Assembly: GCA_903887485.1 (NCBI GenBank)
Contig: CAISPV010000025.1
Span: forward strand, 1 to 49,723
Direction: 5' to 3'
DNA: 49,723 nucleotides
Source: an uncultured Desulfobulbaceae bacterium
GTDB lineage: Bacteria > Desulfobacterota > Desulfobulbia > Desulfobulbales > Desulfocapsaceae
Shown here: piece after piece, positions 1 to 38,066 of the stretch
Position numbering within the stretch: the stretch's first letter is position 1
How the letters are laid out: each line of letters begins with the position of its first letter
Notes under the pieces: generated by a model
What the model saw: only the letters and a program-made list of their open reading frames with translations
The model's database searches: none
Told to the model about the DNA's origin: nothing
Program-made: the position numbers and the translations under genes

Positions 1-531
1 ACGTTGACGAAGGAACAATTAGAGAACTACTTTGTAGACCTGGTCGAATCACATTCATGGAGCACTGTCAAATTAGACAGACTTGGCCTGATGTTCTTCT
101 GGAAGTTTGTCCTCAATCTCGATTGGCAATGGTTGAACATTGTCAAGCCCCCTAAGGTCAAGACCATTCCGGATATTCTTACCCCCACAGAAATTGAACG
201 GCTCATCGGAGCTACCCAAAAAATGTGTTATCGTGTTTTCCTGCTGACCACATATTCAATGGGGCTTCGCCTGGAAGAAACGCTGTCTCTTCATGTTGGT
301 GACATCGATGCAGGTCGAAAGCTTGTCCATATACGTCGTGGCAAGGGCCATAAAGACCGCATGGTTCCTTTGCCGGATCGCACACTGACAGCATTGCGAC
401 TATACTGGTGCGAGCATCGGCATCCAGCAATGATTTTTCCAAATCGCATCGGCTCACTGGAAACAATGAGACAGGCAACGACCCATATGGATAAGGGGGG
501 CCCCCTATTGTCTTCTCTGGGCGCATACTGA
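1..531 (+). pseudogene. Tyrosine recombinase (XerC/D-like), both ends missing
   Basis: The frame is open from base 1, so the N-terminus lies outside the window. What remains has the end of a core-binding domain and the start of the catalytic domain: the first catalytic Arg in YSMGLRLEE and the beta-hairpin Lys in RRGKGHKDR are visible. The style (TPTEIERLIGATQK, MVPLPDRT) is that of recombinases that travel next to IS91-type transposases; that link is from family knowledge. The frame leaves recombinase-like sequence after HMDKGG, near base 500, and ends at 531. The HxxR box and the nucleophilic Tyr are therefore absent and the product cannot be active. It abuts the 3' end of a second, unrelated integrase fragment on the other strand. 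Confidence 0.8.
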
Positions 532-30385: not shown

Positions 30386-30450
30386 GATATTCCCCCCTTA
30401 TTTCTCGTGGGGAATATCGAAAAACTTTAAATATGAAGAACGTCCCCTTT
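30386..30450 (+). repeat. Relic of a RAYT element right end with REP-like hairpin
   Basis: A 10-bp perfect inverted repeat GATATTCCCC/GGGGAATATC (30386-30395, 30409-30418) runs into ACTTTAAATATGAAGAACG and TCCCC. The same order of bases occurs at the end of the intact transposase element (37621-37663: GGGGATATC, ACTTTAAATATCAGGAGCG, TTCC). Read on the other strand it also matches the left end of that element (AAAGGGGACGTACTT). It is therefore most likely a left-over end of a second copy. Confidence 0.6.
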
Positions 30451-30504
30451 TCTTTCCTTTTCTTTCCGATGATTTTTCCGTACTCATTGCCCTCTCCTCC
30501 TCTG

Positions 30505-30743: not shown

Positions 30744-30835
30744 CGCTAACATGCGGGTCAAGCGGGACCGGCGAAATGCCGGCTTTGGTCTTTGCCAGCG
30801 CTTGCGCGCCGGCCCCTTACCCCTAGACGTTAGGA
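30744..30835 (+). other. attC site 1
   Basis: Begins GCTAACATGCGGGTCAAGC and ends CCTTACCCCTAGACGTTAGG. The outer arms pair with few mismatches, and an inner GCCGGC block gives a second paired box. The recombination point would be in GTTAGG at 30829. It belongs to a lost upstream cassette. Confidence 0.75.
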
Positions 30836-30843
30836 TGTTTGCT

Positions 30844-31605
30844 ATGGATCAGCTATACGACCAATCCTTGAGTAACATGGAGAATACTTTGCACGATCTC
30901 TCGCAACGCGTTCCTCAGCCGCAGCGCGTACCGTACAAGGATTCGTTTGTCTTTCGGTATGCCGAGAAAAATATCCATCAAGCACTAATTCAGAAGCTGG
31001 CGCGCCTTATAAGCAGCCTCCATGCTGCTCGACTCTTGATGGAGCATGGCTTTGTTCAAGAGCAGGCTGCGTTACAGCGCGTACTTGACGAGATTAGAGA
31101 AGACATTAGCTTTCTCGCATTTGCTGTGATCTTCAACAATAAAACTCCACTTCACCAAACATATCTAGATGCTTTTTTTGAAGAGGAGTTCGACGCCGAT
31201 ACAGCTATGGCTTCAACACAAAAACGTCCTATGGTTCAACGAAAGAAAATTCGCGCCTACAACACACGATGTTTGGGCGCAGCTATGGATTTTAGTAGTA
31301 ATGAAGCCTCTAGAACAGTTAGCAAGACATACTCGGGCTATGTTCATGCGGCATCACCACAAATCATGGACATGTACGGCGGAAATCCTCCAAGATTTCA
31401 TGTGCGTGGAATGCTGGGAACTGAGCGCCAACAGGAGCACAGGGATGACCTCTGGAATTACTTCTACCGAAGTATCCTTGCCTTTTCGTTCGCAGCCAAG
31501 GCTTTTGGCGACGAAGTACTTTTTGCAAAGATACATGAGTTCACCATAGAGTTTGAACGTCTATCCGGTAAGAACTATGGGCCAAGCAAGCAAAACCAAT
31601 CCTAA
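30844..31605 (+). CDS. Cassette 1: hypothetical helical protein
   Basis: A 253-residue cytoplasmic protein with no signal peptide or membrane segment. The AGGA of the attC end (GTTAGGATG) can serve as ribosome-binding site for the ATG at 30844; the ATG at 30835 inside that site is the alternative. The sequence is mostly alpha-helical (MENTLHDLSQRV, LIQKLARLISSLHAARLL, QAALQRVLDEIREDI), with a Tyr/Phe-rich C-terminal half. No catalytic motif is seen. The layout recalls cassette-borne hypothetical proteins of environmental integrons, but I cannot assign a family. Its TAA stop is the start of attC 2. Confidence 0.75.
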   Translation: MDQLYDQSLSNMENTLHDLSQRVPQPQRVPYKDSFVFRYAEKNIHQALIQKLARLISSLHAARLLMEHGFVQEQAALQRVLDEIREDISFLAFAVIFNNKTPLHQTYLDAFFEEEFDADTAMASTQKRPMVQRKKIRAYNTRCLGAAMDFSSNEASRTVSKTYSGYVHAASPQIMDMYGGNPPRFHVRGMLGTERQQEHRDDLWNYFYRSILAFSFAAKAFGDEVLFAKIHEFTIEFERLSGKNYGPSKQNQS

Positions 31606-31687
31606 CGATGGGCCTCAAACAGACGCCGGGGAGCGCTGTGGTATTGGCGAAGTCCAGTGGCGGCGCTGCTTAGGCCCATCGTTATGG
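31602..31687 (+). other. attC site 2
   Basis: The outer arms TAACGATGGGCCT (31603-31615) and AGGCCCATCGTTA (31672-31684) are perfect 13-bp reverse complements. Inner boxes GACGCCG/CGGCGCTGC pair with an unpaired offset. Recombination point GTTATGG at 31681. This is the best-formed site of the array. Confidence 0.9.
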
Positions 31688-31759
31688 TATAGAGTGCAAA
31701 AAAACTAACAGCCACTTAGGCGAGACACTAGTCAATTAAACATGGAATGGATGATCTAG

Positions 31760-32467
31760 ATGGAACCAGCAAACATAATAATATGGACATGTGTACTTGT
31801 TTTCATTGTAACTGCAACAATTGCACTTTTGCATGTGTCAGGAATAAGACCATTGCCTAATCCACGCCATGGGGAAATTCTATTTAAAGTATTAATCGTC
31901 GAAGTGGCTGTAATTGCTATTTCAATATTTGGTTCGTACAAGGAACTTTATCAGAAACATAACGAAGAAGTTCAATTCGCTAAGCCAGCCGTCGGATGGA
32001 AACAATTCACAGATAAAGAACGTGGATTTGCTGTTTCATTTCCAAACAGGTGGTTTTTGGATGACAGATCATACAAATTAGATGGCACTTTCTTTATACA
32101 AGTTCCTGATAATACTAAGGTAAACATTAATATTACATACGAAAAGGTAATTGATAAATATGTCAACGATATCAAATCCTACTTTGATGAGACGATAATT
32201 GAAAACAAAACAATGTTTAAAGCAACCATAAGTAATGAGACAAGATTTAATTATAAAGGGTTCCAATCAATGTCATTCATTGCCCAATTGAATGGCATTG
32301 GAAAAGATAGCACTTCATTCAAGCAATATGTGATGCAAGTCTACGACCAGAGGAGTGGAGTCGTTTACACGCTTGCTTTTACCTGTCCAGATAGTGTTTG
32401 GGAAAAATACTACCCTGATGGCAGAGATATAATGAATTCATTTGAGTGGCGTGAAAACAAAGCCTAA
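31760..32467 (+). CDS. Cassette 2: membrane-anchored protein with PsbP/DUF1795-like domain
   Basis: A 235-residue protein. Two N-terminal hydrophobic helices (about 6-26 and 44-62) are followed by a soluble domain that starts GFAVSFPNRWFLDDRSYK and contains alternating beta-strands and one helix, ending YYPDGRDIMNSFEW. This is the layout of PsbP-like/DUF1795 (DcrB) domains, found in bacterial periplasmic proteins of poorly known function; the assignment is by pattern only. Codon use is AT-rich compared with the flanking core genes. Its TAA stop opens attC 3. The ribosome-binding site is weak. Confidence 0.75.
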   Translation: MEPANIIIWTCVLVFIVTATIALLHVSGIRPLPNPRHGEILFKVLIVEVAVIAISIFGSYKELYQKHNEEVQFAKPAVGWKQFTDKERGFAVSFPNRWFLDDRSYKLDGTFFIQVPDNTKVNINITYEKVIDKYVNDIKSYFDETIIENKTMFKATISNETRFNYKGFQSMSFIAQLNGIGKDSTSFKQYVMQVYDQRSGVVYTLAFTCPDSVWEKYYPDGRDIMNSFEWRENKA

Positions 32468-32515
32468 TTATGTGCTCAATGCTCTAGCGGCATTCCGCAA
32501 AACTCGATGTTATGG
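32463..32515 (+). other. attC site 3 (short, degenerate)
   Basis: Starts with the stop of gene 2 (CCTAATTATG), has a central GCGG-CATT-CCGC hairpin and ends GATGTTATGG, with the recombination point at GTT 32509. Outer pairing is poor and the AAC box reads AAT. It is accepted mainly for its place between two cassette genes and its intact 3' end, which resembles that of attC 2. Confidence 0.5.
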
Positions 32516-32525
32516 TGAGGTATCA

Positions 32526-33029
32526 ATGAAAGAAAATTTGCAAAAAAGCATAAATCGAGCAATCACCCTATTAAACACGCCACAAGAATATGAAAAATAT
32601 ATTTCAATCAAATTGTCTCCACCGTCTGGGTGTTGCTGTTCTCATTGCTGGCCAGAAACATGGCGAAAAGTAAACGAATTCATTTCACCTTCAGGCCCTG
32701 TCGGGCATGAAGGTGACGCTTTAATAGAAATAAATAAAAACACATTTGTTCTTGAGTCTCACGAAAGTGGCCCAGAAATAACTTTATATCTTGCTCTGGC
32801 AACTGCATCAGCAACTTTAGTAAAATCAGTTATTGAACTTGTTACAGTTATTATTAAAGGCATATCAAACGAAAGCAGAAAGCAACCACCAAGAATCAAG
32901 ATTACAAAAAAGCAATTTACTAAAGGTGAAATTGAGGAAGAAATTGTATTTGAGATTGATATCCCTATTTCAAAAGGCATAGAAAAGCAACTTGAAGAAA
33001 AAATTATAAAGGCGCTTAATAAACCATAA
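32526..33029 (+). CDS. Cassette 3: hypothetical membrane protein with Cys cluster
   Basis: A 167-residue protein starting at the ATG at 32526, with GGTGAGG upstream; longer frames start inside the attC site. Near residues 34-45 it has a striking cluster, SGCCCSHCWPETW, that could bind metal or form disulfides. A hydrophobic helix (about 78-100, LYLALATASATLVKSVIELV) divides it from a basic and acidic C-terminal part (RIKITKKQFTKGEIEEEIVF). I do not recognise the family. It is AT-rich like gene 2. Its TAA stop begins attC 4. Confidence 0.72.
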   Translation: MKENLQKSINRAITLLNTPQEYEKYISIKLSPPSGCCCSHCWPETWRKVNEFISPSGPVGHEGDALIEINKNTFVLESHESGPEITLYLALATASATLVKSVIELVTVIIKGISNESRKQPPRIKITKKQFTKGEIEEEIVFEIDIPISKGIEKQLEEKIIKALNKP

Positions 33030-33113
33030 CCAGTCACTACAGCGGACCCGGTACAATCTGGCGTGAACTATCTGCAACTTCAATGGCCGGGTCCGCTGAG
33101 CTTGGCGTTAACG
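33025..33113 (+). other. attC site 4
   Basis: Starts at the stop of gene 3 (CCATAACCAG) and ends GGCGTTAACG (recombination point 33107). Inner boxes GCGGACCCGG (33042-33051) and CCGGGTCCGC (33087-33096) are perfect reverse complements, separated by about 35 bp. Confidence 0.88.
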
Positions 33114-33136
33114 CTGTCCATAAGGGAACTGAACGT

Positions 33137-33562
33137 ATGGAATCTGTATTGAATGCACTCATCGCAAAACTGCCAGTTCGAGCATTGAGCTTAACAGTTG
33201 CGTTTGTCCTAACTTGGATTTCTGGACTTACCATCGCAGGGATAGTTACTCATCGCGCAGTTGAGTTCTTTCCTCCAAAGATTGGTTCAGATCCGATCCT
33301 CCAAAAAGAGATGGCGGGTCTTTCGGCAGAAGTTAAGAATCTTGCTGCTACAGAAATGGAATATAGAAAGATTGTCTTCGCGGCTCAGGAAAAGGCAATG
33401 GACGATTTGATTGTGCTCAGACGAATCGGCTCGCCCGGGGAAAGTGAAGCCAAGAGCAATATTGAAAAATATGCCGAATTGTTGCGCAGCGAAGATTCCA
33501 AGATCAGCACTGCCATTGAAGAGCTAAAACAGAAGGCTGCGTCCATTGAAAAACAGCTCTAA
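33137..33562 (+). CDS. Cassette 4: small membrane-anchored coiled-coil protein
   Basis: A 141-residue protein from the ATG at 33137, preceded by AAGGGA; the longer frame starts within the attC site. A single transmembrane helix lies at about 13-37 (LSLTVAFVLTWISGLTIAG). Two long polar helices follow with heptad-like spacing (LQKEMAGLSAEVKNLAA, then YAELLRSEDSKISTAIEEL and KQKAASIEKQL), suggesting a coiled-coil stalk. No catalytic motif. The gene ends on the TAA of attC 5. Function unknown. It directly precedes the large lytic protein gene, but cassette neighbours need not be related. Confidence 0.74.
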   Translation: MESVLNALIAKLPVRALSLTVAFVLTWISGLTIAGIVTHRAVEFFPPKIGSDPILQKEMAGLSAEVKNLAATEMEYRKIVFAAQEKAMDDLIVLRRIGSPGESEAKSNIEKYAELLRSEDSKISTAIEELKQKAASIEKQL

Positions 33563-33622
33563 CCCTACGCTCAACCGGACCTGCGCGAAAAGCCGCGCAG
33601 GCCGGTTAGCTGCACGTTGGGT
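33558..33622 (+). other. attC site 5
   Basis: TCTAACCC at the stop of gene 4, and GTTGGG at 33616. Arms AACCGGACCTGCGCG (33573-33587) and CGCGCAGGCCGGTT (33594-33607) pair fully except for one extra A at 33579. A single unpaired extrahelical base of this kind is what integron integrases use to choose the strand of folded attC sites. Confidence 0.88.
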
Positions 33623-33683
33623 ATCGTGAAAACTCAGACTTGTCTTTATCGTTATTCAACCACCACGAGGGAGGCGAATAAAA

Positions 33684-36557
33684 ATGCAAAGCACACAAAT
33701 CAAAACCTTACTGCTAATGCGCGGCAACGCCGATCCAAAAGTCGCCGACCTCAAAGCAGCCTTGCACAAAACCTTGGGCAAGGCTACGGCAGCAACCTAC
33801 CCCGGCTTGTCCAGCGGCAATAAATTCGATGCCGACACAGAGGACGCGTTGCGGGCCTGGCAGGCCAGTATTGGCTTGGTGGCTGACGGTATTGCTGGAC
33901 CGCGCACTCTGTCCGCCTTGGGCATTTTACCGCCTGCGAAGCTGGATGTAACGGTGGATACCGCCACTGTGAGCAAGCTATTTCCCTTCACCCGCACATC
34001 CAGCATCGCCGCTAATCTGCCTTATGTAACGGCGGCGCTGGCGGCTTTCGGCCTGACCAGCAAGGACATGATCTGCGTTGCGCTGGGTACGATACGCGCC
34101 GAGACCGAGGGCTTTGTGCCGATTGCCGAATTGCCTTCGCACTTCAACACGCTGCCCGGCCAGGCCGCTTTCAGCGCCTATGAACGCAAGCTGGGCAACA
34201 AGAATCCCGGCGATGGGGCGCGCTATCGCGGGCGGGGTTATGTGCAGTTGACTGGCCTCAGCAATTACATCACTTACGGCGGCATCCTCGACATACCGCT
34301 GGCAGACAACCCCGAGAGCGCTTGCGCGCCGGAAGTTGCCGCCTGCTTGTTGGCCGCCTTTCTCAACGAGAACAAGATAAAACTGCAAGCCGAGCTCGCG
34401 AAGAACGACCTGAAAGCCGTGCGCAAAGTTGTCAATGGTGGTAGCCACGGGCTGGATCGTTTTACCGAAGCATTCAATGCAGGCCAGAAAGTGTGGGCTG
34501 TCGCACTGTCGCTGGCCGGTGCAGCACGCAAGGTAGCTCCCGTCGCGGCGCGGCGTGCCGCGCTCAATGTGACGAGCGACCCGAAGGATTTGCGCGACCG
34601 CTCATATACGCCGCCGCCAAACTCGCTGCCGCAGATGTACCCGACAAATGACAACATCAAGCATTTCATGGGAGCCTATACCAAAGCCGGTCTCATTCTG
34701 GACCAAGGGCAGGAAGGTGCATGCACCGGGTTCGGCTTGGCTTGCGTCATCAACTACCTGCGCTGGCATGCCGCCGGAATGCCAGCAAAACTCGAATCCG
34801 TCAGCCCACGTATGCTGTACCACTTCGCCCGCCGCTTCGACGAATACGAGGGTGAAGACTACGATGGCTCAAGCTGCCGGGGCGCGCTCAAGGGCTGGTA
34901 TTACAACGGGGTATGCGTCAAATCGAAATGGCCTTACGCAACGGGAAGGGACACCCTGCCCAAGCCGGGCTGGGATAGCGATGCCATCGAGCGGACACTG
35001 GGCGTGTATTACCGGATAGACCTCCAGACCATCACCGACTTGCAGGTAGCTATTCAGGAAGTCGGCGCGATTTACGTTTCGTCCTATACCCACAAGGGTT
35101 GGGATGCGGTAACGACCAGCACCACGCAGCCCGCATCCCATGCTGATCTGCCGGTGATACCCTACGATGGCAAGCCGTCGCGCAAAGGTGGCCACTCATT
35201 CGCCCTGGTGGGGTTTAACCGCACCGGCTTCGTGGTGCAGAATTCGTGGGGCAACAACTGGGGCGCGGGCGGATTTGCGGTCATCAGCTATGCGGACTGG
35301 CTGGTGCATGCCATGGATGCATGGGTCGCCGCCATGGGCGTGCCGGGGGTGGTATCGGGGCGCCTCACGTCGAGTGGCAGCAAGCATACAGCCGCCGCCG
35401 CTGGCGCCGCACACACCAACTGGTGGGACGAAGAAAAGGCCTACCAGCACAGCATCGTGCTGGGCAACAACGGACACGTCAACCACTTCGACAAACTGGA
35501 CGAAGTAACGCGCACGCTACAGCACCAGGCCTGTGTCATGCCGGGTGAATGGTTCCGGGAAAATCAGCGGCAAAAAAAACGCATCGTCATCTACGCCCAC
35601 GGCGGCCTCAACAGCGAAGCCAGCGCAATCCAGCGCGCCCAGGCGATGGGGCGATATTTCATGGGCAACGGCTGCTACCCGCTGTTCCTAGTGTGGAAAA
35701 GCGGCCTGCTCGAATCCATAGGCGACGTACTGGCGGACAAATTCGAATCCGGCACCGCAGAAAAAGCGGGCGGCATCCGCGACTGGATAAACGACAAAAT
35801 CACCGACCCCATCGTCGAAAAAACCATCGGACGCCCCTTCGCGCGCCCCCTGTGGACCGAGATGAAAGAAAACGCCGAACTGGCCTCAGAAAGCGGGCGC
35901 GGCGGCGACCTGCTCACCGACGCACTGCGCGGGCTGGCCAGCAGTTGGGGCAGTGAATTCGAAGTACACCTCATCGGCCATTCCGCAGGTTCCATCATGT
36001 TGGGCAGGCTGCTGAACAACCTCGCGCAAAAAGGCCTGACCGGCCACGTCAAAACGGTACACCTGTACGCCCCAGCCTGCACCGTCGCGTTTGCCAACCG
36101 CTACTACGCCCCGCATAAAGAAATCATGAACAACCTTTACATGGACATACTGGCGGATCAAAAAGAGCAAGACGACAACGTGGTGACCATTTACCAGAAA
36201 TCCCTGCTCTACTTCATCTCCAATGCGTTGGAGGCTGACACGCGACTCCCCATCCTGGGGCTGGCGAATGTCTACGATCAGAAATTCAACGGCTGGGATG
36301 GCACCTCATGCACAGCCGAAGCGCTCATCAACTGGCGCACTGCCGTGGAAAACAGCGGTCTGGAAAAGCGCAAAAAAATCCACGACGAAGAAAAATTCAT
36401 CACCTGCAGAGGAAACGGAGCGGATATACAACAGAAGACCGAAAGCCCATCGCACGGCGGCTTCGACAACAATATCGATGTCATCGGAGAAACGTTGAAG
36501 CGGATCGTTGGAGCGGTGGCGCTCGATATGCCGGTTGATGATCTGGTTGGGTTTTAG
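33684..36557 (+). CDS. Cassette 5: multi-enzyme lytic protein (PG-binding, GH19-like, papain-like, alpha/beta hydrolase)
   Basis: A 957-residue protein with GGAGG nine bases before the ATG. Four modules are visible. Residues ~12-80: peptidoglycan-binding type 1 repeat (FDADTEDALRAWQ, DGIAGPRTLSALG). ~98-275: GH19/lysozyme-like fold, with Glu140/Glu142 in RAETEGF and GARYRGRGYVQLTG. ~300-555: papain-like C1 peptidase, with LDQGQEGACTGFG (Cys347), GGHSFALVG (His504) and QNSWGNNWG (Asn520). ~630-957: alpha/beta hydrolase, with oxyanion loop YAHGG, GHSAG (Ser767) and a likely catalytic His924 in SHGGFDNN. No signal peptide. The set could attack cell wall, proteins and lipids, so an antibacterial or lysis role is inferred. 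High GC sets it apart from genes 2 and 3. No attC follows. Confidence 0.85.
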   Translation: MQSTQIKTLLLMRGNADPKVADLKAALHKTLGKATAATYPGLSSGNKFDADTEDALRAWQASIGLVADGIAGPRTLSALGILPPAKLDVTVDTATVSKLFPFTRTSSIAANLPYVTAALAAFGLTSKDMICVALGTIRAETEGFVPIAELPSHFNTLPGQAAFSAYERKLGNKNPGDGARYRGRGYVQLTGLSNYITYGGILDIPLADNPESACAPEVAACLLAAFLNENKIKLQAELAKNDLKAVRKVVNGGSHGLDRFTEAFNAGQKVWAVALSLAGAARKVAPVAARRAALNVTSDPKDLRDRSYTPPPNSLPQMYPTNDNIKHFMGAYTKAGLILDQGQEGACTGFGLACVINYLRWHAAGMPAKLESVSPRMLYHFARRFDEYEGEDYDGSSCRGALKGWYYNGVCVKSKWPYATGRDTLPKPGWDSDAIERTLGVYYRIDLQTITDLQVAIQEVGAIYVSSYTHKGWDAVTTSTTQPASHADLPVIPYDGKPSRKGGHSFALVGFNRTGFVVQNSWGNNWGAGGFAVISYADWLVHAMDAWVAAMGVPGVVSGRLTSSGSKHTAAAAGAAHTNWWDEEKAYQHSIVLGNNGHVNHFDKLDEVTRTLQHQACVMPGEWFRENQRQKKRIVIYAHGGLNSEASAIQRAQAMGRYFMGNGCYPLFLVWKSGLLESIGDVLADKFESGTAEKAGGIRDWINDKITDPIVEKTIGRPFARPLWTEMKENAELASESGRGGDLLTDALRGLASSWGSEFEVHLIGHSAGSIMLGRLLNNLAQKGLTGHVKTVHLYAPACTVAFANRYYAPHKEIMNNLYMDILADQKEQDDNVVTIYQKSLLYFISNALEADTRLPILGLANVYDQKFNGWDGTSCTAEALINWRTAVENSGLEKRKKIHDEEKFITCRGNGADIQQKTESPSHGGFDNNIDVIGETLKRIVGAVALDMPVDDLVGF

Positions 36558-36604
36558 GGGGTGGTTGAAAAATAGCGGAACTCAGATTGCGCTTATTCGA
36601 GTAC

Positions 36605-37663
36605 AAAGGGGACGTACTTAATATTTTCAGTTTTCATGATATACTGCCTTCATGCCTAGACATGCCCGCATAGATATTCCCGGATTGCTTCAGCACGTTA
36701 TCGTCAGAGGGATCGAGAAGTGCCCCATCTTCCTTGACGATCAAGACCGGGCAAATTTTCTCTCCCGCCTCCGCGTTCTCTTGTCGGAAACCGAAACCGA
36801 CTGCTACGCCTGGGCCTTGCTCGACAACCACTTTCACCTGTTACTGCAACCGAAACAACGGACACTGGCCGAGATCATGCGGCGCCTGCTGACCGGTTAC
36901 GCTGTGGTGTTCAATCTGCGCCACCATCGTACCGGACACCTTTTTCAAAACCGCTACAAGTCCATTGTCTGCGATAAAGACCCCTATTTTCTGGAGCTGG
37001 TGCGGTACATCCATCTGAACCCAGTACGGGCGGGAATTGTCGGAGATCTTGAGACGCTGGCGGCTTACCCTTGGTGCGGGCATTGCGAACTGCTCGGACG
37101 AGCATCCATGCCGATGATTCAAGTGGATGAGGTTTTGCCGCTCTTTGCAAGGCAGCGCAAGGCCGCACGGCAAAAATACGAATCTTTTATTGCCGATGGG
37201 TTCCATGACCACTCCATGACCAAGCTCTCAAGCGGCGGAAGACGATCGAGCAGGGCCCTGGACCCGTCCATTGCCGAAGATGCGATGTTTGACGACAGGA
37301 TCCTTGGAGGAGGGCATTTTGTCGAGCAAGTGCTGAACACGTCCAGCATCGTGCAGAACAATCACCGTATGCCGCTCACCGAACTGGTGCAGCGAGTGGC
37401 CACCTCTTTGCAGATCGCGCCGGCTACTTTGAGCGCCCCAAGCAAGGAACGGAACATTGTCCGCGCCAAAGCCATAATCAGCCACATAGCGGTCAGAAAG
37501 TTGGGGATCAAAGGGCTGGATGTCGCCGCCACGCTGGGCTATAGTTCGACAGCGGTGACCCAGGCGGCAAAAAGAGGTGAGGCGCTTCTGGCTGCGGAGA
37601 GAGATCTGGGAAAGATGTTGGGGGATATCACAAAACTTTAAATATCAGGAGCGTTCCGTTTTT
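36605..37663 (+). mobile_element. RAYT (REP-associated) transposon with imperfect terminal inverted repeats
   Basis: Left end AAAGGGGACGTACTTAATA (from 36605) and right end ACTTTAAATATCAGGAGCG plus TTCCGTTTTT (to about 37663) are imperfect reverse complements flanking one transposase gene. The same end is found alone at 30409-30450. IS200-like HUH elements of this kind move as single strands and often leave hairpin repeats. The right end touches the 3' end of the DUF2721 gene, whose stop codon (37662-37664) lies in the terminal T-run. Confidence 0.7.
36652..37641 (+). CDS. REP-associated tyrosine transposase (Y1/HUH)
   Basis: Single-strand transposase of the IS200/RAYT family. The HUH motif is LLDNHFHLLLQP (His60, His62) and the catalytic Tyr is Tyr119 in LVRYIHLNPVRAG, the usual RAYT signature. 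The N-terminus MPRHARIDIPG and HVIVRGIEK are also typical. Unlike minimal IS200 enzymes it has a C-terminal extension (about 230-329) with a DnaA domain IV-like helix-turn-helix (RAKAIISHIAVRKLGIKG, DVAATLGYSSTAVTQAAKR), a form seen in many Desulfobacterota RAYTs. 329 residues and apparently intact. Confidence 0.9.
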   Translation: MPRHARIDIPGLLQHVIVRGIEKCPIFLDDQDRANFLSRLRVLLSETETDCYAWALLDNHFHLLLQPKQRTLAEIMRRLLTGYAVVFNLRHHRTGHLFQNRYKSIVCDKDPYFLELVRYIHLNPVRAGIVGDLETLAAYPWCGHCELLGRASMPMIQVDEVLPLFARQRKAARQKYESFIADGFHDHSMTKLSSGGRRSSRALDPSIAEDAMFDDRILGGGHFVEQVLNTSSIVQNNHRMPLTELVQRVATSLQIAPATLSAPSKERNIVRAKAIISHIAVRKLGIKGLDVAATLGYSSTAVTQAAKRGEALLAAERDLGKMLGDITKL

Positions 37664-38066
37664 AATCCGGTCTCCCTTTGCTCTCCATCGAACACAACTC
37701 AAGATTAAGCGCCTCAACAGAGAGCAAAATTTCCCGAAACGAGATACCAAGAGAGGCAAGCAACAGGAATAAACTGATCGCGAACACGATCTTGCCGGCA
37801 AACTGCCAGCCAAAAAAAAGAAACAGCATACAGACCACGCAACTAAAAAGTCCTGCAACCCCACAGGCCTGCATATTTCTGATCAGCATCACCCGCCGAC
37901 GCAGACTCTTGATCTGAGAGAGTAAGATAGCATCAGGATTTACCTGATACCGATCATGCAGGTTGCGGATCCGCGAACCAAGGGCCAGAAAGCGATTGGT
38001 ATAGGCGATAAGAAGAAAGGTCACGGCCGGAAAAAGCAGGGCTGGTGTGGTAAAAGTGATATCCAT
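37662..38066 (-). CDS. DUF2721 membrane protein
   Basis: A 134-residue protein starting MDITFTTPALLFPAVTF, with LLIAYTNRFLALGSRIR close behind, the hallmark of the DUF2721 family. Three hydrophobic segments (about 8-24, 68-84, 88-108) flank a conserved polar stretch (QIKSLRRRVMLIRNMQ). The function of the family is unknown. The stop codon falls in the T-run at the right end of the RAYT element, so the insertion may have replaced the last few residues. It is the first core gene on the right of the island. Confidence 0.8.
   Translation of the reverse strand: MDITFTTPALLFPAVTFLLIAYTNRFLALGSRIRNLHDRYQVNPDAILLSQIKSLRRRVMLIRNMQACGVAGLFSCVVCMLFLFFGWQFAGKIVFAISLFLLLASLGISFREILLSVEALNLELCSMESKGRPD

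What the first reader, a model, noticed from the sequence alone, without database searches (positions are those of the whole stretch)
33684..36557. Cassette-borne protein with three putative lytic enzymes in one chain
One 957-residue product combines a peptidoglycan-binding repeat, a GH19/lysozyme-like domain (Glu140/Glu142), a papain-like Cys peptidase (Cys347, His504, Asn520) and an alpha/beta hydrolase (Ser767 in GHSAG, possible His924). All key residues are visible. There is no signal peptide. Such an arrangement would let one protein attack glycan, protein and lipid or ester bonds. I know of no described family with this exact order. It may be an interbacterial effector, a phage-like lysis factor or a defence effector. 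Its presence in an integron cassette is unusual because cassettes are normally short.
Basis: partly seen in the sequence, partly recalled or inferred. Interest (0 to 1): 0.85.

Follow-up and report, generated by a model that had tools for sequence, protein, structure and literature searches.

The report
Three lytic enzymes in one protein
A bacterial gene encodes one protein that joins a cell-wall-cutting enzyme, a protein-cutting enzyme and a probable fat-cutting enzyme; the same three-part protein occurs in a small group of other bacteria and may serve to break cells open, though when and in whose cell it acts is not known.

Summary
In detail: 33684-36557 (+) is one intact 957-codon frame with a PG_binding_1 repeat, a GH19 endolysin-type domain, a C1 (xylellain-like) papain fold and a lipase-like alpha/beta hydrolase. 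Named residues are conserved, but the second GH19 acid is Glu149, not Glu142. It is no assembly join: 17 further loci from 16 other genomes (14 Gallionella/Nitrosomonadales-type, 2 Variovorax) have the same order, the fused forms in the tree make one branch, and every module is under purifying selection. 'Cassette-borne' is not shown: the gene follows the last attC-like site of a small array and no attC was recognised after it. The wider family, papain plus alpha/beta hydrolase, is widespread and mostly solitary; on Rhizobiaceae plasmids 8 of 11 copies lie beside a cell-wall hydrolase gene of varying family (GH19 in three), often with a caspase gene after it. Fusion and adjacency point to joint destruction of the envelope. 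No signal peptide is visible, the host and the seven Gallionella-type hosts tested lack a T6SS sheath gene, and no neighbour looks like a common immunity gene. I favour a latent cytoplasmic lysis effector over an injected toxin; that part is inference. New variant of a known kind.

The parts
33684..36557 (+). CDS, 957-aa fused lytic protein (stop included)
33670..33674 (+). GGAGG, likely ribosome-binding site, 9 bases before the ATG
   Evidence: read
33705..33929 (+). Peptidoglycan-binding repeat, about aa 8-82 (Pfam PF01471 at 46-79)
   Evidence: 10 of 27 members of A1 match
33960..34499 (+). GH19 endolysin-type domain, about aa 93-272; acids Glu140 (34101-34103) and Glu149 (34128-34130)
   Evidence: acid spacing as in TseP E654/E663
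34554..35342 (+). Xylellain-like C1 peptidase with N-terminal pro-like stretch, aa 291-553; Gln341, Cys347 (34722-34724), His504 (35193-35195), Asn520 (35241-35243)
   Evidence: 3ois Z 26.4, rmsd 3.6, 240 aligned; that Gln341 is the oxyanion-hole residue is inferred from its place six before Cys347
35427..36518 (+). Lipase-like alpha/beta hydrolase, aa 582-945; Ser767 (35982-35984), His924 (36453-36455), HGG 639-641, acid probably Asp825 or Glu828
33558..33622 (+). Last attC-like site of the array before the gene
   Evidence: folds with z -5.69, 0 of 200 shuffles as good
30745..33120 (+). Small attC-like array: sites near 30745-30838, 31601-31692 (z -5.55), 32460-32523, 33022-33120, with ORFs of unknown function between
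   Evidence: seen by eye; folds (three of the five sites are weak)
36605..37664 (+). Y1 (IS200-like/RAYT) transposase element directly after the gene; also present in two related genomes

Best explanation
The gene encodes a fused envelope-lytic protein. A phage-endolysin-type GH19 glycosidase with a peptidoglycan-binding repeat has been joined, once as far as the tree samples it, to a two-enzyme unit made of a xylellain-like C1 peptidase and a lipase-like alpha/beta hydrolase. Shown: the modules, their folds, conserved catalytic residues, purifying selection on each module, one branch for the fused forms sampled, closest relatives in Gallionella/Nitrosomonadales-type genomes and absence from the host's sampled relatives (so probably acquired), and, on rhizobial plasmids, the unfused unit beside separate cell-wall hydrolase genes. 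Inferred: the protein is kept in the cytoplasm in a latent state (the conserved stretch before the peptidase looks like a pro-segment), is released by proteolysis, a ligand or cell damage, and then attacks membrane lipid, peptidoglycan glycan and protein together, so that a dying or infected cell is lysed, or neighbours are attacked after lysis.
For: Modules and folds. Conservation. Same order in 18 loci, window included. One branch for the 10 fused rows in a 41-row quick tree, SH-aLRT 100. dN/dS 0.08-0.26 for the four modules in 7 pairs. In one search, 8 of 35 unfused loci have a cell-wall hydrolase homologue within 3 kb, all 8 among the 11 Rhizobiaceae plasmid loci; families differ: Amidase_2+PGB, PGB with a sub-cut-off CHAP, CHAP, DUF2272+SH3, GH19 (Pfam run for six of the eight; L099 and L101 by homology). 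Same queries on 245 kb of five of the same plasmids elsewhere: no hit; no cell-wall hydrolase named among the 117 listed features of the three annotated control stretches. Caspase gene with a GDSL-like part (GDSL just under cut-off) directly after the unit in L083 and L099-L102. No T6SS sheath gene in the host. No common immunity candidate.
Against: The adjacency is confined to Rhizobiaceae: 27 of 35 unfused loci lack such a neighbour and many stand between unrelated genes; the queries came from loci that they then recovered, and several positive loci are near kin. No activation signal, holin or regulator is seen beside the window gene. PADLOC has no match. A protein held in the cytoplasm cannot reach peptidoglycan unless something, possibly its own lipase-like part, breaches the membrane. 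Lipid as substrate rests on fold similarity only (Z 12.4, 15% identity). Both Variovorax hosts do have a T6SS sheath gene.
Confidence: 0.42

Rival explanations
1. Interbacterial effector delivered by a secretion machine (T6SS or another contractile injector), comparable to the chimeric amidase-lysozyme TseP: the three enzymes attack the prey's envelope after injection.
For: No visible signal peptide; the GH19 domain matches TseP's lysozyme domain 8xcl; two-enzyme chimeras are known T6SS effectors (listing and passages of PMC11893102); both Variovorax hosts and one Rhodobiaceae host of the unfused unit have VipB.
Against: VipB absent from the host and from 14 of 17 genomes, among them all 7 Gallionella/Nitrosomonadales-type fused-gene hosts tested; no common immunity candidate beside 18 fused loci. 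Only this one T6SS marker was searched, and other injectors were not.
Confidence: 0.2
2. Degradative enzyme released by host lysis or an unrecognised export route, used to digest dead cells for nutrients, with no killing role.
For: Three complementary hydrolases; often solitary genes in environmental bacteria.
Against: No signal peptide seen; caspase, trypsin and S8 peptidase neighbours on some rhizobial and related plasmids are not typical of scavenging genes.
Confidence: 0.2
3. Domesticated phage endolysin whose extra C-terminal domains only tune or target the lysin.
For: Residues 91-286 match a phage endolysin family (phrog_181 E 2.5e-29) and residues 8-270 mycobacteriophage lysin A; free-standing 265-272 aa PGB-GH19 proteins exist (L095, L096).
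Against: No phage record has a place covering 80% of the protein; none in viral contigs at close range; the C-terminal enzymes keep their own catalytic residues under purifying selection and exist without the lysin.
Confidence: 0.1
4. Assembly or binning artefact: a chimeric contig joined a Gallionella-type gene into this genome.
For: The gene differs in G+C from the window (58.7% against 49.2%) and is 92% identical in DNA to a gene of another genome; no same-genus genome searched carries it.
Against: One contig holds the attC-like array on the left and, on the right, a Y1 element and DUF2721 gene that lie side by side in a sister genome (G004). The fused frame itself is not the artefact, since 17 other loci have it.
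Confidence: 0.08

Closest known systems
SPN1S-type GH19 endolysins (4ok7) and the TseP C-domain (8xcl)
   Same: GH19 lysozyme fold; acid pair nine residues apart; a peptidoglycan-binding module is common in such endolysins (recalled)
   Different: Here the N-terminal part of a 957-aa protein with two more hydrolases; not in a phage or T6SS cluster
Xylellain (3ois), bacterial C1 peptidase
   Same: 27% identity over 240 aligned residues, Z 26.4; catalytic Cys/His/Asn; a shared stretch before the peptidase
   Different: The xylellain chain has 291 residues and one enzyme domain
Lipases with alpha/beta hydrolase fold (A. fulgidus lipase 2zyh, PGAP1, DUF900)
   Same: Fold, GHSAG nucleophile elbow, late His
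   Different: No clear sequence family: Pfam DUF900 under cut-off, best PDB profile match E 0.031
TseP chimeric T6SS effectors
   Same: Several cell-wall enzymes in one chain
   Different: TseP has an immunity protein and a T6SS; neither is found here
Alphaproteobacterial peptidase-rich conflict systems (system 3 of Kaur et al. 2020, PMC7159879)
   Same: Several peptidases with lysozyme and papain-like effectors, mostly in alphaproteobacteria, like some rhizobial neighbourhoods here
   Different: Those are defined by a NucA nuclease and trypsin, some with EAD1; no such Pfam match in the window protein

Membership tests
GH19 endolysin (SPN1S/TseP-C type) | Sequence and fold homology | tested here: met
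   4ok7 E 5e-16; Foldseek E 3.4e-6, TM 0.60 on the target. PF00182 is missed by the window protein itself and matched at E 0.01 or better by 6 of 27 members of A1 (best E 0.0023)
GH19 endolysin (SPN1S/TseP-C type) | Catalytic Glu pair | tested here: met
   Glu140/Glu149 align with two Glu of 4ok7 (that these are its catalytic acids is recalled) and have the spacing of TseP E654/E663; both invariant in 10 fused proteins
GH19 endolysin (SPN1S/TseP-C type) | Phage lysis context | tested here: not met
   No phage record with 80% coverage; the neighbours scanned are not phage genes
Peptidase C1 (xylellain-like) | Pfam cut-off, catalytic Cys/His/Asn and fold | tested here: met
   PF00112 over cut-off; 25 of 27 members match, the other two lacking the domain; xylellain Z 26.4, rmsd 3.6, 240 aligned
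Peptidase C1 (xylellain-like) | Proteolytic activity | not testable with these tools
   needs an assay
Alpha/beta hydrolase, lipase-like | Fold, GxSxG, Ser and His | tested here: met
   Z 12.4 to 2zyh, rmsd 3.4, 178 aligned; Ser767 and His924 invariant in 40 rows
Alpha/beta hydrolase, lipase-like | Catalytic acid | tested here: inconclusive
   Glu828 invariant, Asp825 nearly so; geometry not inspected, coordinates not available
T6SS effector | T6SS in the producing genome | tested here: not met
   VipB in 0 of 1 own genome; in 3 of 17 others, among them both Variovorax hosts
T6SS effector | Conserved adjacent immunity gene | tested here: not met
   18 fused loci compared; recurrent neighbours are housekeeping-like
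T6SS effector | Delivery marker domain | tested here: inconclusive
   none in the Pfam scan; no dedicated search was made
Integron gene cassette | attC directly after the gene | tested here: inconclusive
   none recognised by eye at 36557-36640; the stretch 36555-36640 folds better than shuffles (z -2.55) but as a branched structure, not one long attC-like stem; no attC model was available
Integron gene cassette | attC directly before the gene | tested here: met
   33558-33622, z -5.69
Integron gene cassette | Integron integrase in the genome | tested here: inconclusive
   TIGR02249: 17 matches, none over cut-off; best is a 137-bit C-terminal piece on contig C115; genome in 124 contigs
Known defence systems | PADLOC model match | tested here: not met
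   0 families
Kaur system 3 | EAD1, trypsin or NucA in the protein | tested here: inconclusive
   no such Pfam match; whether Pfam models EAD1 was not checked; neighbours of the window gene have no such match either

The most novel reading that the evidence does not exclude
The papain plus alpha/beta hydrolase unit is the constant core of an undescribed bacterial lysis or conflict system that takes on interchangeable cell-wall hydrolases, either as a neighbouring gene (CHAP, Amidase_2, DUF2272, GH19, in part followed by a caspase gene, in rhizobia) or by fusion (GH19, here), giving one protein that can take a cell apart from within on a trigger.
Probability: 0.25. Interest if true: 0.8.

Novelty: new variant of a known kind. 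Interest (0 to 1): 0.5.

Why it matters
If the reading is right, this is a single-chain enzyme set against glycan, protein and probably lipid, and the wider papain plus hydrolase family (seen in several phyla) gets a functional lead: on rhizobial plasmids it travels with cell-wall hydrolases and caspases. That can be tested directly in laboratory E. coli and in culturable Variovorax or rhizobia.

Tried and rejected
Phage origin of the whole protein: rejected. Conserved immunity gene: among 18 fused loci the shared neighbours are two syntenic groups (L138-L141; L009-L010), small blocks or single genes shared by a few loci (such as L004/L006, L005/L136, L135/L137, L003/L007) and one gene in 7 loci at differing distance and side, which by my reading of its sequence is a DjlA-like J-domain gene (no library scan of it). 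The window locus shares none. Single-locus lipoprotein-like genes after the gene in L004, L006 and L137 have no relatives among the other fetched loci. T6SS. Known defence family. My attC script found only one of the five sites seen by eye, so the other four rest on reading, and three of the five fold weakly. Foldseek's list for the whole chain is filled by papain folds, hence the separate hydrolase model. The M15 peptidase gene 7 bases after the gene in L004, with matching pieces in L005, was not followed further. Rows left out of counts: L011 (residues 665-957 only, two frames), L020 (unit in two frames; scanned for neighbours but not in the tree), L021 and L022 (cut by contig ends); the second papain-hydrolase copy in L082 was not scored for neighbours; L076 has a neighbour related to the DUF2272 protein of L082 (E 9e-17) without a Pfam match and was not counted. 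Paper searches listed no description of this architecture in the held open library; that is no proof that none exists. Catalytic-site superposition was not possible without coordinates.
Full report
What is there. The frame 33684-36557 (+) is open for 957 codons from an ATG, with GGAGG nine bases before it. Pfam finds PG_binding_1 at 46-79 and Peptidase_C1 at 338-535, both over cut-off, and only a hint of an alpha/beta hydrolase (DUF900, E 0.15). PDB sequences give the SPN1S GH19 endolysin (4ok7, E 5e-16) and xylellain (3ois, E 1e-12); PHROGs give endolysin families for the N-terminal part (phrog_181 at 91-286, E 2.5e-29). AlphaFold2 of the full chain (27-row alignment) has mean pLDDT 74.7 and pTM 0.46, with a poor stretch at 148-183 inside GH19. 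Foldseek lists cathepsins and papain first, then 4ok7 and 9ms7, with TseP 8xcl at rank 50. VIA-align puts xylellain first: Z 26.4, rmsd 3.6, 240 aligned. A separate model of 576-957 (21 rows, pLDDT 78.0, pTM 0.83) is an alpha/beta hydrolase nearest to A. fulgidus lipase (Z 12.4, rmsd 3.4, 178 aligned; rows within one Z unit are tied).

Active sites. Cys347, His504 and Asn520 are listed at 90% or more over the 27 rows (two rows lack the domain). Ser767 and His924 are invariant in the 40-row alignment, with Glu828 invariant and Asp825 nearly so as possible acid. The alignment to 4ok7 puts Glu140 and Glu149 on two Glu nine apart (that these are its catalytic Glu49 and Glu58 is recalled), and in TseP the active residues are E654 and E663, also nine apart (passages of PMC11893102). 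Spatial geometry was not inspected.

Is the fusion real? Nine loci from genome contigs have the full order, seven Gallionella/Nitrosomonadales-type MAGs (one titled only 'Proteobacteria') and two Variovorax. In the family of the Gallionella genome behind L004, 34 of 150 sampled genomes match: 13 have a full-length copy (six already seen), 18 hold only the distant papain-hydrolase part, and three hold partial or broken copies. With the window that makes 18 loci compared. In a 41-row quick tree of the papain-hydrolase part the 10 fused rows included fall on one branch with SH-aLRT 100, although several other rows have long branches. dN/dS is 0.08-0.26 for all four modules in seven pairs; the short linker varies from 0.08 to 0.93. 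The refutation 'assembly join of separate genes' fails for the frame.

Where it came from. None of 57 relatives of the host carries the full protein; two (G030, G039) carry most of the papain-hydrolase part at 38-41% identity and others only short pieces. In a phylum sample only the window's own genome of 395 has it full length. DNA identity to L002 is 92% over 33611-36587, gene plus short flanks, and G+C is 58.7% against 49.2% for the window. Acquisition from a Gallionella-type donor is the simplest reading. Related genomes show the place to be variable: G015 has other genes between points equal to 30459 and 37670; G004 has the Y1 element beside DUF2721 as here but other DNA to its left; G008 has the Y1 element about 6.7 kb from DUF2721.

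Is it a cassette? Five attC-like sites were seen by eye; two fold far better than shuffles (31601-31692 z -5.55; 33558-33622 z -5.69), the others weakly (z -2.15, -1.32, -0.31). The gene starts right after the last one, and homology to L002 begins within about 10 bases of its end, which would fit a cassette boundary. Against this, no attC was recognised after the gene (36555-36640 folds with z -2.55, but branched), and no integron integrase scores over cut-off in the genome; the best match is a C-terminal piece in one frame with transposase sequence on another contig. The cassette label is unproven. I did not scan the relatives' flanks for attC sites.

Context of relatives. The unit without the lysin (mostly about 610-740 aa) occurs in Rhizobium, Rhodobiaceae, Acidobacteria, Nitrospirae, Flavobacteriales, Anaerolineales and others, often between unrelated genes. 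On Rhizobiaceae plasmids it is different: Amidase_2+PGB before it in R. etli (L081), PGB with a sub-cut-off CHAP, divergent, in S. fredii (L080), DUF2272+SH3 in R. gallicum (L082), CHAP in S. meliloti (L083) and Rhizobium CC1099 (L102), GH19 in S. mexicanum, S. chiapasense and S. terangae (L099-L101). That is 8 of 11 Rhizobiaceae plasmid loci and 8 of 35 unfused loci. The GH19 neighbours match the window's own GH19 (E 1e-7 to 2e-5). The same queries found nothing in 245 kb of control stretches from five of these plasmids. Caveats: queries were drawn from positive loci; L083 and L099-L102 are near kin; 27 unfused loci lack such a neighbour. In L083 and L099-L102 a caspase gene with a GDSL-like part follows; R. 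leguminosarum has trypsin, caspase and YEATS-helix genes; a Roseivivax relative is fused to a trypsin-like domain. In Gallionella L004 an M15 peptidase gene begins 7 bases after the fused gene.

Neighbours of the fused form. Among 18 loci, L138-L141 share one place and L009-L010 another; a few other pairs share single genes or blocks; one DjlA-like gene (my reading of its sequence) occurs in 7 loci, from under 1 kb to several kb away and on either side; the window locus shares none of these. Nothing behaves like a cognate immunity gene.

Mechanism. Partners that are separate genes in one group and one chain in another usually act together. I read the protein as an envelope-lytic effector. The stretch 291-315 (D299, D302, R304, D305, P310 nearly invariant) aligns with the N-terminal part of xylellain and lies where VIA-align pairs the model with pro-segments of cathepsins, so a latent form is plausible. 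With no visible signal peptide, no VipB in the host or in 14 of 17 other genomes, and no common immunity gene, self-lysis or release on lysis fits better than injection; both Variovorax hosts do have VipB, so delivery there stays open. Activation, substrates and place of action are inference.

Known or new. All modules are known. I found no report of this order, or of the papain plus alpha/beta hydrolase unit, in the listings of my searches of the held library. The nearest concept in print is the peptidase-rich alphaproteobacterial conflict system of Kaur et al. 2020 (PMC7159879; section 32 and passages read), with lysozyme and papain-like effectors, but its defining parts were not found here. 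I rate it a new variant of a known kind.

Noticed in passing
L099-L102, L083 (Sinorhizobium and Rhizobium plasmids): Recurrent three-gene set: cell-wall hydrolase (GH19 or CHAP), papain plus alpha/beta hydrolase, caspase with GDSL-like part; looks like an undescribed lysis or conflict operon.
   Followed up: partly
window 36605-37664 and 30408-30451: Y1 (RAYT-like) element after the gene, about 94-96% identical in two same-genus genomes (beside DUF2721 in G004, some 6.7 kb from it in G008); a 44-nt repeat like its end lies before the attC-like array.
   Followed up: partly
L108 1204-1842 (genome contig C115): Piece resembling an integron integrase C-terminus in one frame with a Y1 transposase N-terminus.
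   Followed up: partly
window 4-531: Fragment of a tyrosine recombinase cut by the contig edge (TIGR02249 positions 41-175, E 3e-20).
   Followed up: no
window 30751-33562: ORFs of unknown function between attC-like sites; one (31760-32467) has a weak PsbP-like match under cut-off.
   Followed up: no
L008 12691-13161: Second, partial copy of the hydrolase C-terminus (residues 798-957, 70% identity) about 2 kb after the full gene; partial or broken copies also in G531, G464 and G546.
   Followed up: partly
L004 10860-11459; L005 10720-11043 and 13173-13325: M15 peptidase gene 7 bases after the fused gene in L004, matching pieces in L005.
   Followed up: partly
L065, L066: The same chromosomal place in sister genomes holds different genes (signalling genes, transposase-like genes): a variable spot.
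   Followed up: partly
L006, L135, L137, L138-L141: Fused gene lies near a DjlA-like J-domain gene in 7 of 18 loci, at differing distance and side; may be a preferred region in Gallionella-type chromosomes.
   Followed up: partly
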